Source: Haloarcula salinisoli
GTDB lineage: Archaea > Halobacteriota > Halobacteria > Halobacteriales > Haloarculaceae
NCBI RefSeq assembly: GCF_019599405.1
Contig: NZ_RKLQ01000003.1
Span: 62,001-126,000 of the forward strand
Reading direction: 5' to 3'
Length of the DNA stretch: 64,000 nucleotides
This document shows positions 31,397-61,158 of the stretch, in pieces. A model generated the notes under the pieces. The model was not told the DNA's origin. It saw only the letters and a program-made list of their open reading frames with translations, and searched no databases. A program made the translations under genes and the position numbers. Within the stretch, counting starts at the first letter, position 1. The number at the start of each line of letters is the position of its first letter.

Positions 31397-31725
31397 GGCG
31401 GATTCGAACCACGGTCACTCCGCTCCGCTTCGTTCCCTGGTTCGCATCCGCCGGCCGCTTCACACACGCGCCGCTCATGAGTGAGCGCCGCGAGAAGTTC
31501 AGTGGGTCCGGGCGGATTCGAACCACGCCGAGACGTGCTCGCGTCGCTGCGCGCGTCTCGTCTGCTTCGCATCCGCCGGATTTCACTCTTCGTTCCTCAC
31601 GTCCGTTCGTCACAGAAGAGTGGGTCCGGGCGGATTCGAACCGGAGGAAGACTCACTGCGTTCGTCTTCCAGGGTGTCGAATCCGTCCTCCGTCACGATT
31701 CTGTCGCTCGCGGATTGCTCGCGAC
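31397..31725 (-). repeat. Tandem tRNA-Val-derived palindromic units
   Basis: Three units lie downstream of tRNA-Val. They begin at 31397 (GGCGGATTCGAACC), 31504 and 31621 (both GGGTCCGGGCGGATTCGAACC, the complement of the tRNA-Val T arm and acceptor end). Each continues into an inner hairpin (for example GAAGACTC...CGTCTTC) and ends in an inverted T-arm-like TCGAATCC or TTCGCATCC. Period about 107-117 bases, ending with the true tRNA at 31734. Confidence 0.8.
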
Positions 31726-31733
31726 AGGAATAG

Positions 31734-31807
31734 TGGGTCCGGGCGGATTCGAACCACCGACCTCGGCCTTGTAAAGGCCACGTCATAACCGACTAGACCA
31801 CGGACCC
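31734..31807 (-). tRNA. tRNA-Val (UAC)
   Basis: 74 nt. The acceptor GGGTCCG pairs with CGGACCC, discriminator A. The anticodon stem is TGGCC/GGCCG with loop TTTACAA, anticodon TAC. The T arm is GGTGG-TTCGAAT-CCGCC. No intron, CCA not encoded. Confidence 0.93.
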
Positions 31808-58803: not shown

Positions 58804-58848
58804 CGTCGTCAGCGAGACGGCTCGCTGTGGAGTTACGTTAGAGAGAAA

Positions 58849-59360
58849 GCGCCCGGAGCGGGATTTGAACCCGGGCAAACGCTCGCTAACGCTCGCGTTT
58901 GCGTGATTCAAATCCCTCACAGCCGCACAGCGAAAGCAGAACGCGGCGCGATGAAACGCGCCGCTTGCCAATTTGAGTTCGAAGAAGCGCCCGGAGCGGG
59001 ATTTGAACCGGAGCCAGACGTGCTCGCTCCCTTCGGTCGCTGTGCGCGACTGGCAGGGTTCAAATCCCTCGTAGTCGTTCACAGATTCGAGCGGTTGCGA
59101 CGCGATGAAACGCGTCGCTTGGTAGTTTGAAATTGAAGAACGCCCGGAGCGGGATTTGAACCGAAAGAAGACTCGCTGACGCTCGTCTTCTAGGGTTCAA
59201 ATCCGCTCATTTCCGTTTCAACTGCTCACGGAGACGAGCACACGCTACGCGGTGCTCGCCGATTTGTTCGCAGTAGAAGACGCCCGGAGCGGGATTTGAA
59301 CCGGAACCAGACGTGCTCGCTCCCTTCGGTCGCTGTGCGCGACTGGCAGGGTTCAAATCC
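58849..59360 (-). repeat. Tandem tRNA-Asp-derived palindromic units
   Basis: Four units begin at 58849, 58988, 59141 and 59281. Each opens (G)CGCCCGGAGCGGGATTTGAACC, the exact complement of the tRNA-Asp T arm and acceptor end, continues into an inner hairpin (for example GAAGACTCG...CGTCTTC) and closes with the inverted T-arm GGTTCAAATCC. Period 139-157 bases, ending at the true tRNA (59437). Units 1 and the tRNA also share about 40 bases of downstream flank. Confidence 0.85.
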
Positions 59361-59436
59361 ACTCATCCGCGTTACCTCGAACTCGCTGTCGCTCGGCGAC
59401 GAGACGCCTCGCTGGGGAGTTAAGTTAGAGAGAAAG

Positions 59437-59509
59437 CGCCCGGAGCGGGATTTGAACCCGCGTCACAACCGTGACAGGGTTGTATGATGGGCCACTACAC
59501 CATCCGGGC
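59437..59509 (-). tRNA. tRNA-Asp (GUC)
   Basis: 73 nt. The acceptor GCCCGGA pairs with TCCGGGC, discriminator G. The anticodon loop CTGTCAC gives GTC and the T arm is GGGTTCAAATCCC. No intron. Confidence 0.95.
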
Positions 59510-59662: not shown

Positions 59663-59806
59663 CTACGTCTCGTCTAGATTTTCTACCGCTTCCAACCCGG
59701 CTTCGATTATCTCTTCATAGGCTTCTGTGAGGCCCATATCCTGCTGTTCAGCGTAATCTTTCACTCGTCCATTCAGCGTGTGCGAAACGTCGATATTCGG
59801 TCGCAT
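59663..59806 (-). CDS. Small ribbon-helix-helix-like protein of the IS element
   Basis: 47 aa from the ATG at 59804-59806. The N-terminal strand [10 protein letters not shown] (2-11) followed by two helices ([19 protein letters not shown]) matches a minimal RHH fold. Divergent from tnpB with 38 bases between starts; likely a repressor of the element. Confidence 0.65.
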
Positions 59807-59844
59807 TGTGGCTGTCCAAAAGACATTTAGACATAGAATTACTA

Positions 59845-61158
59845 ATGTCTGTTGTCGTGAGGCGAACCAACACGTTTGTGGTACGTCCACTTTCCGACGA
59901 CGACGAGCGGATACTGCGAGACCTGTTGGACGCCTCTGCGAGCCTGTGGAACGAACTCAATCACGAGCGCCGCCAGCAGTTCTTCGATGGTGAAAGCGTC
60001 TGGGACACCGCCGACTACCGCAAACAGTACGTCGGTGTTCTCGGCTCTGCCACCGCACAGCAAGTGATTCGAAAGAACAAGTCAGCGTGGCAGTCGTTCT
60101 TCGCCGCCAGCGAGAACGCCGAGAATACTGCTCCGCCGGGCTACTGGGGCAACGAGGAAGAAGGCCGCGAGCTACGCACCTTCATCCGCAACGACTCCTA
60201 CACGCCGGAAACCGGTGAGCGGTCGCGGCTGGAAATTCCAGTCGGCCAAGACCTGAAAGACGAACACGGCCTTGGCTACCACGACCGCCTTCGCCTCGAA
60301 GTGCGTGGCACCCCGAAGTGGGAGGGAGAACAGGGCCGTTTGGAGATACAGTACGACGAGACAGACGACACGCTCAGGGCCTTTCAGCCTGTCACTGTAC
60401 CTAATTCTCGGCAGGATTCACCATTGACTTCTCACGAAGCCGCGCTGGACGTGGGCGCAAACAATCTCGTCGCCTGTACCACCACGACTGGCCAGCAGTA
60501 TCTCTACGAAGGCCGAGACCTGTTCGACCGCTTCCGCGAGACGACCGAGGAAATCGCCCGTCTCCAGTCCAAACTTCGTGACGGGCGGTACAGCAGTCAG
60601 CGGATACGACGGCTGTACCGCAAACGGACTCGGCGGCGCGACCACGCACAGGATGCACTGGTACGGGATTTGATGGAACGACTGTACGCCGAAGGTGTCG
60701 CTACAGTGTACGTGGGCGACCTCACCGACGTTCTCTTGACGCACTGGTGCGCCGAGGTGAACGCAAAGACCAACCAGTTTTGGGCGTTCCGGGCGTTCAT
60801 CGACCGATTAGGGTGTACCGCTGAGGAGTATGGCATCTCGGTCGAAGTGCGGTCGGAAGCAAACACAACCCAAACGTGCCCAGTGTGTGGCGAGCAGGAC
60901 GACACCGACCGGGACGGCGATGTGTTCCGGTGTCCGTGCGGTCACGAAGCTCATGCCGACCTGTGCGCGTCTCGGACGTTCCTCGAACAGCAGGCTGGCG
61001 AACCCGAAGTCGGGTCGATGGCTCGGCCCGTGCGTCTCACGTGGGACGACCACCGTTGGTCGGAGCTACCATACTCTCCCGAGAGCGAAAGTCCCAACGA
61101 GAAGCGCACAAACCGGAGTACCGGCGACGGGAAACTTGCCTCGGTGGGGACAGCATAG
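59845..61158 (+). CDS. tnpB: TnpB (RNA-guided nuclease family) of the IS1341 type
   Basis: 437 aa. RuvC-I Asp202 in A-L-D-V-G-A, RuvC-III Asp372 in H-A-D-L, and zinc finger C345-x2-C348 with C363-x-C365. The RuvC-II region reads [12 protein letters not shown]: no glutamate is present where related haloarchaeal proteins, as I remember them, have D-V-L-E-T-H-W. So the nuclease may be inactive. TnpB normally binds an omegaRNA made from the 3' end of its gene. ATG at 59845 chosen by position of the family start M-S-V-V-V-R-R. Confidence 0.88.

What the first reader, a model, noticed from the sequence alone, without database searches (positions are those of the whole stretch)
58849..59509. Tandem palindromic units built from the tRNA-Asp 3' end
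Four repeats of 139-157 bases follow tRNA-Asp. Each starts with the complement of its T arm and acceptor, contains a hairpin, and ends with an inverted T arm, so each unit is bounded by inverted tRNA T arms. This is not a plain integration scar, which would leave only one-directional copies. It may be a tRNA-derived amplifying element, an integration decoy, or a 3'-processing signal.
Basis: partly seen in the sequence, partly recalled or inferred. Interest (0 to 1): 0.78.

Follow-up and report, generated by a model that had tools for sequence, protein, structure and literature searches.

The report
Hairpin cassettes trailing haloarchaeal tRNA genes
Salt-loving archaea carry, right behind about half of their tRNA genes, short gene-less DNA cassettes that copy the tail of that very tRNA around a hairpin and that are gained, lost and reshuffled between species, a widespread feature that I could not match to any described repeat or mobile element.

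Summary
Four tandem units lie 3' of tRNA-Asp, which is on the minus strand. On the tRNA strand each unit is: spacer, 11-nt inverted T-loop arm, inner hairpin, exact copy of the tRNA's T-arm and acceptor 3' end. A second array of three units follows tRNA-Val at 31.4-31.7 kb. It is a genome-wide trait: 20 of 42 tRNAs have such units, built from their own 3' end; no upstream flank does. In a phylum sample, 58 of 72 genomes of the same order have exact modules and 0 of 224 others. The inverted arm accompanies 129 of 134 direct copies. The tRNA strand folds better than its complement (92:25), with covarying stems and a polar internal loop. Congeners differ in unit number at 12 of 26 orthologous tRNAs; filled and empty sites show precise cassettes; spacers and inner hairpins reassort at the inverted arm. 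Two true integrative elements use other att blocks inside the tRNA, so scar and decoy readings are disfavoured. Best reading: non-autonomous hairpin cassettes exchanged at T-loop sequences; enzyme unknown. Side finding: all 31 haloarchaeal PDDEXK_5 nuclease genes inspected lie beside or within a tRNA gene. No description was found in the open-access library.

The parts
59436..59509 (-). tRNA-Asp(GTC), the source of the unit arms
   Evidence: ARAGORN and Rfam RF00005
59361..59435 (-). spacer 1 between tRNA and unit 1 (own hairpin)
59281..59360 (-). unit 1 palindromic module: inverted T-loop arm (59350-59360), inner hairpin family C, T-arm/acceptor copy (59281-59302)
59205..59280 (-). spacer 2
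59141..59204 (-). unit 2 module: inverted arm 59194-59204, inner hairpin family D, T-arm/acceptor copy 59141-59162
59068..59140 (-). spacer 3
58988..59067 (-). unit 3 module: inverted arm 59057-59067, inner hairpin family C (99% identical to unit 1), T-arm/acceptor copy 58988-59009
58916..58987 (-). spacer 4
58850..58915 (-). unit 4 module: inverted arm 58905-58915 (G.U variant), inner hairpin family B, T-arm/acceptor copy 58850-58871
58806..58849 (-). terminal spacer copy after the last unit, part of the 91% repeat with the flank of the tRNA
   Evidence: D3
31733..31807 (-). tRNA-Val(TAC), which carries a second array in the same window
31621..31684 (-). tRNA-Val unit 1 module
31503..31574 (-). 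tRNA-Val unit 2 module
31400..31449 (-). tRNA-Val unit 3 module (T-loop core kept, acceptor replaced); homologous to the only unit of the congener G001

Best explanation
The units are non-autonomous, gene-less hairpin cassettes that live at the 3' ends of haloarchaeal tRNA genes. Each is a spacer hairpin, an 11-nt inverted copy of the tRNA's T loop, an inner hairpin that recurs at different tRNAs, and a direct copy of the tRNA's T arm plus acceptor. Shown here: arms match the local tRNA, inner hairpins are shared between tRNAs, cassettes are present or absent as precise blocks ending at the tRNA 3' end, spacers and inner hairpins reassort with a breakpoint at the inverted arm, and the tRNA strand is the one that folds best. 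Inferred: T-loop sequences, direct and inverted, are the exchange points of a DNA breakage/recombination process that acts on a folded single strand at the tRNA 3' end. A new cassette enters between tRNA and flank and restores the tRNA 3' end, as a gene cassette does at an integron attI or a spacer at a CRISPR leader. The inverted arms are then kept alike by template copying across the hairpin. The enzyme is unknown.
For: Genome-wide at tRNAs: 20/42 own and 17/30 in a congener, 0/42 upstream. 58/72 sampled genomes of the order against 0/224 other genomes of the phylum. In the scan of 84,980 genomes 72 of the 80 listed loci are haloarchaeal, and where a tRNA is found the module lies 32-353 nt (median 48) behind it. 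129/134 direct copies have the inverted arm (<=2 mismatches) against 1/134 for the reversed-core null. Filled/empty pairs: the tRNA-Ser flank follows the unit in G000 and follows the tRNA directly in G001; tRNA-Val has 3 units against 1 (own distal one, 90%); one tRNA has the same inner part but a wholly different spacer, breakpoint at the inverted arm. 12 spacer x inner combinations at tRNA-Asp, including all combinations of s1-s3 with i1 and i3. 14 of 22 multi-member inner clusters span different tRNAs, 11 of them different T-loop cores. T-loop A/G type matched in 111/117 modules. Internal loop longer on the 3' side 66:3.
Against: No mobilising enzyme is identified. Gain and loss cannot be polarised with two genomes, so deletion between direct repeats explains filled/empty pairs equally. 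Strand bias and covariation would also follow from a selected RNA hairpin. Spacer clusters are single-linkage, so reassortment counts are approximate. No excised or circular form was seen. Flanking repeats of 21-24 nt could recombine by ordinary slippage.
Confidence: 0.5

Rival explanations
1. Functional RNA: the units are transcribed with the tRNA as 3' trailers, and the hairpin (inverted T loop paired with the T-loop copy) is a selected signal for termination, 3' processing or protection.
For: tRNA strand folds better (92:25 modules, p about 1e-12; spacers 77:29); arm mismatches are G.U rather than A.C on the tRNA strand, 67:11, although 43 come from one position shared by whole families; covariation in 8 of 22 pairs, 25 cells, 0/500 shuffles; T-rich tract after each copy as after the tRNA.
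Against: About half of the tRNAs lack units; number varies from 0 to 4 at tRNA-Asp among relatives and at 12/26 orthologous tRNAs between congeners; spacers are swapped outright; terminal loops are GNA (55) and GNYA (14) rather than GNRA (2), not the usual RNA preference (the preference is general knowledge); no transcript data.
Confidence: 0.24
2. Mutational origin without a dedicated element: fold-back template switching and slippage at the tRNA 3' end, helped by the palindromic T arm, create and homogenise inverted arms and tandem copies.
For: Template switching between short inverted repeats homogenises arms and inverts the segment between them (abstract of PMC8604942); arms match the local tRNA; direct repeats of 21-24 nt allow precise loss.
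Against: Does not explain inner hairpins of recognisably the same sequence at different tRNAs and genera, restriction to one order in the phylum sample, or strand and loop polarity.
Confidence: 0.16
3. Remnants or decoys of integrase-driven elements (attR scars or tandem att sites).
For: tRNA 3' ends are standard att sites in archaea (PMC8371274); direct copies restore the tRNA 3' end.
Against: With up to 20 kb of flank searched behind 42 tRNAs, only one far exact copy exists: an 11.2-kb element with an integrase-like gene beside the far att copy, whose att block extends 10 nt further 5' than the 22-nt probe and which has no inverted arm or hairpin. A second element, at the tRNA C2:662485, ends with a roughly 13-nt acceptor repeat and leaves the old unit beyond it. 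Unit identity blocks start at GG|TTC.
Confidence: 0.06
4. By-products of homing by the tRNA-linked PDDEXK_5 nuclease: it cuts tRNA 3' regions and repair leaves T-arm/acceptor duplications and palindromes.
For: All 31 nuclease loci inspected are at tRNA genes: 29 downstream on the same strand, one inside a tRNA-Lys, one directly before a tRNA-Arg; one is followed directly by a T-arm/acceptor copy; a decayed copy sits behind tRNA-Pro in the congener.
Against: Found in 50/117 genomes only; most arrays inspected have no nuclease gene, and co-occurrence was not tested.
Confidence: 0.04

Closest known systems
attR scars of tRNA-targeting tyrosine integrases (for example SNJ2-type in haloarchaea)
   Same: Copies of the tRNA 3' end downstream of an intact tRNA.
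   Different: Identity block starts at the T loop, inverted arm and hairpin in nearly every unit, 110-160 nt period; the two true elements seen here look different.
Integron gene-cassette arrays (attI/attC)
   Same: Layout: fixed site, then repeated [site - cargo - inverted half site - hairpin - half site]; polar internal loop; one strand folds better; array content turns over.
   Different: No genes in the cassettes, no integron integrase identified, a tRNA gene as fixed site, arms copied from each host tRNA. Analogy only.
CRISPR arrays and casposon target duplication
   Same: Repeat duplicated at each step beside a fixed leader; casposons use tRNA 3' ends (general knowledge).
   Different: Spacers are hairpins that recur between species, and the repeat is a tRNA end; no Cas1 link was looked for.
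Haloarchaeal MITEs, PATEs and small mobile repeats (PMC3119063)
   Same: Short palindromic non-coding repeats in the same class of archaea.
   Different: Units occur at tRNA 3' ends and have arms that change with the host tRNA; comparison with IS200/IS605 ends was not run.
REP/BIME palindromes
   Same: Short intergenic palindromes in clusters.
   Different: tRNA-bound, host-derived arms; a RAYT was not looked for.

Membership tests
Integrase attR scar | Identity block equal to the att core of an integrase element, reaching to the tRNA 3' end | tested here: not met
   Unit copies share GG|TTC to the acceptor end; the true element shares 10 nt more on the 5' side
Integrase attR scar | Only same-orientation copies, element body or remnant between them | tested here: not met
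   129/134 copies have an inverted arm 25-130 nt upstream; no gene body between units in the arrays printed
Integron cassette array | intI integrase next to attI | not tested
   No dedicated integrase search was run around the arrays
Integron cassette array | Imperfect hairpin recombination site with conserved arms, variable inner part and strand polarity | tested here: met
   Structure only; that it is a recombination site is inferred
Integron cassette array | Arrays that differ as precise cassettes | tested here: met
   (between species; direction of change not polarised)
MITE or IS-derived repeat | Terminal inverted repeats shared with an autonomous transposon, insertion independent of a fixed locus | tested here: inconclusive
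   Arms follow the host tRNA's own T-loop type (111/117) and modules occur at tRNAs; comparison with transposon ends was not run
Rfam RNA families | Match above gathering score | tested here: not met
   Only the three tRNAs match in the window
Selected RNA hairpin | Transcription of the unit | not testable with these tools
   No RNA-seq
Selected RNA hairpin | Covariation and sense-strand wobble bias | tested here: met
   also expected for a folded DNA strand

The most novel reading that the evidence does not exclude
A widespread haloarchaeal recombination system in which the tRNA gene is the fixed site and T-loop sequences in both orientations are the exchange points, with folded single-strand hairpin cassettes entering, leaving and swapping parts at tRNA 3' ends: an integron-like array without genes, grown on tRNA genes.
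Probability: 0.35. Interest if true: 0.88.

Novelty: categorically new. Interest (0 to 1): 0.76.

Why it matters
A structured, fast-changing repeat sits behind about half of the tRNA genes in the two haloarchaeal genomes surveyed in full, and I found no description of it in the open-access literature searched. It means the 3' flanks of haloarchaeal tRNA genes are an active recombination landscape, and it bears on why integrative elements and homing nucleases favour tRNA 3' ends. If the hairpins are recombination sites, a recombinase or nuclease acting on folded strands remains to be found; if they are RNA, a new layer of tRNA 3'-end biology. Both are testable in laboratory haloarchaea: modules were seen in several Haloferax species.

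Tried and rejected
Integration scars: rejected on att block and on the missing arm in two true elements. Decoy for integrases: both elements used the tRNA. Plasmid or viral carriage: phage records gave no match and the four plasmid matches are short; of nine viral-contig hits only one (L320) is a haloarchaeal-type unit, the others are palindromic bacterial tRNA halves or a chance hit inside a tRNA cluster. An inverted arm that reaches through the acceptor (suggested by tRNA-Lys): not general, identity falls to background after 11 nt. The opposite order (T, gap, inverted T) as an independent element: it marks the spacer between two units. Alignment A1 held a typing slip in one row; A2 corrects it with the same result. 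Rfam gave nothing beyond tRNAs. Literature: ten searches in the open-access library found no report of such units; subscription papers were not searchable.

Full report
OBSERVATION. The window is haloarchaeal (G000, contig C3:62001-126000). tRNA-Asp(GTC) is on the minus strand at 59436-59509, so the four units lie downstream of it. Read on the tRNA strand, each unit is a spacer (72-76 nt), an 11-nt inverted T-loop arm (GGATTTGAACC or GGATTTGAATC), an inner hairpin, and a direct copy GGTTCAAATCC-CGCTCCGGGCG of the tRNA's T loop, 3' T stem and acceptor. All four copies are exact over 22 nt, and all four fold into the same shape with no shuffle as stable. A second array of three units follows tRNA-Val in the same window.

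GENOME-WIDE. The same architecture follows tRNAs for Glu, Pro, Lys, Arg, Gly, Leu, Ser, Cys and others, each with that tRNA's own sequence. Own 22-mers recur within 600 nt downstream at 16 of 42 tRNAs, against 1 of 1676 comparisons with other tRNAs' 22-mers; upstream flanks have none. With the looser rule, 20 of 42 own tRNAs and 17 of 30 in a congener carry units.

DISTRIBUTION. The exact palindromic pattern is in 58 of 72 genomes of the same order and 0 of 224 other genomes in a phylum sample; the backwards control is 0 everywhere. The opposite order appears in 11 genomes and marks the spacer between two units. Where a tRNA is found, the module lies 32-353 nt (median 48) behind it; the six haloarchaeal cases without one are mostly at the end of the fetched stretch or contig.

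ANATOMY. Across 167 tRNAs and 134 direct copies, 129 copies have an inverted arm with at most 2 mismatches in 11, against 1 for a reversed-core null. Direct copies match their tRNA at 87-100% per position; the inverted arm matches over 11 nt and then falls to background. T-loop type (A or G) agrees between arm and tRNA in 111 of 117 modules. The tRNA strand folds better than its complement in 92 of 117 modules (68 clusters: 52 against 16) and in 77 spacers against 29; with DNA parameters the bias is weaker, 74:43. Arm mismatches are G.U on the tRNA strand 67 times against A.C 11 times, though 43 stem from one position shared by whole families. Terminal GNA triloops occur 55 times on this strand against 3 on the other. 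The internal loop next to the arm is longer on its 3' side in 66 modules and shorter in 3. In one family 8 of 22 pairs show changes on both sides, 25 cells, 0 of 500 shuffles (alignment A2, which corrects a typing slip in one row of A1).

DYNAMICS. Inner hairpins form families shared by different tRNAs: 14 of 22 multi-member clusters, 11 of them across different T-loop cores; spacers do so in 1 of 18. Among relatives the tRNA-Asp arrays hold 0 to 4 units, and spacer and inner families combine freely (12 combinations). Between two congeners 12 of 26 orthologous tRNAs differ in unit number. Filled and empty sites show blocks that end at the tRNA 3' end, and one tRNA kept its inner part while its spacer was replaced with the breakpoint at the inverted arm. 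The direction of change was not polarised.

WHAT IT IS NOT. Two true integrative elements in G000 were met on the way. One, 11.2 kb at a tRNA-Ala-like gene, has an integrase-like gene beside the far att copy, an att block that reaches 10 nt further 5' than the 22-nt probe, and no hairpin module (the protein was judged by eye, not searched). The other, at the tRNA C2:662485, ends in a roughly 13-nt acceptor repeat with the old unit beyond it. So scar and decoy readings are disfavoured.

A NUCLEASE IN THE SAME NICHE. PDDEXK_5 (PF11645) genes occur in 50 of 117 genomes of the order. In all 31 loci inspected the gene is beside or within a tRNA gene: in 29 it is downstream on the same strand, within about 500 nt; in L155 it interrupts a tRNA-Lys as an intron would; in L161 it directly precedes a tRNA-Arg. 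Several lie between two tRNA copies, and in L163 the gene is followed at once by a T-arm/acceptor copy. This suggests a homing-type gene of tRNA ends; a link to the units is not shown.

MECHANISM. Shown: local arms, shared inner hairpins, precise blocks, reassortment at the inverted arm, one better-folding strand. Inferred: T-loop sequences are exchange points of a process that acts on a folded strand, so that a cassette enters at the tRNA 3' end and restores it. Template copying across the hairpin (PMC8604942) would keep the arms alike. A selected RNA hairpin remains the main rival, since wobble bias and covariation fit it; its weak points are turnover and patchy presence.

NOVELTY. Ten searches of an open-access library found no description. 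Subscription literature was not available, so 'categorically new' is a judgement from features: tRNA-bound location, host-derived inverted arms and modular turnover fit no family that I could test.

Noticed in passing
L134-L164 (G000:C2:334100-334492 and 30 other haloarchaeal loci): PDDEXK_5 (PF11645) nuclease genes: all 31 inspected lie at a tRNA gene (Asp, Pro, Lys, Gly, Arg, Asn), 29 of them downstream; L155 has it inside a tRNA-Lys. Looks like a homing gene of haloarchaeal tRNA ends.
   Followed up: partly
G000:C3:151252, element to +11.2 kb: Integrative element at a tRNA with a 32-nt att repeat and an integrase-like gene beside the far copy.
   Followed up: partly
G000:C2:662485 to about 669690 (L009): About 7-kb element with a roughly 13-nt acceptor repeat at a tRNA; a palindromic unit lies beyond its far end.
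   Followed up: partly
window 59806-61158 (+): OrfB_IS605/TnpB-like gene (PF01385, Cas12f1-like TNB domain) close to the 5' side of tRNA-Asp.
   Followed up: partly
L222, L225, L321-L325, L327, L328, L221: Bifidobacterium contigs, viral contigs and a Verrucomicrobia contig carry near-perfect palindromes of a tRNA-Met-like 3' half, with the anticodon-stem side included in the arms; possibly invertible phage attachment sites.
   Followed up: no
G000 and G001 downstream of tRNA-Ser, tRNA-Gly and the tRNA of L050: A shared T-rich flank (like CCACCTTTTTCTTCGTCGGGT) follows several different tRNAs after the last unit.
   Followed up: no
L326 (viral contig): Viral contig with a dense cluster of more than 20 tRNA genes.
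   Followed up: no
L093, Haloarcula halophila plasmid: Plasmid region with a long stretch without listed genes that holds a tRNA-end match, between a type B DNA polymerase and a TROVE-domain (Ro60-like) gene.
   Followed up: no
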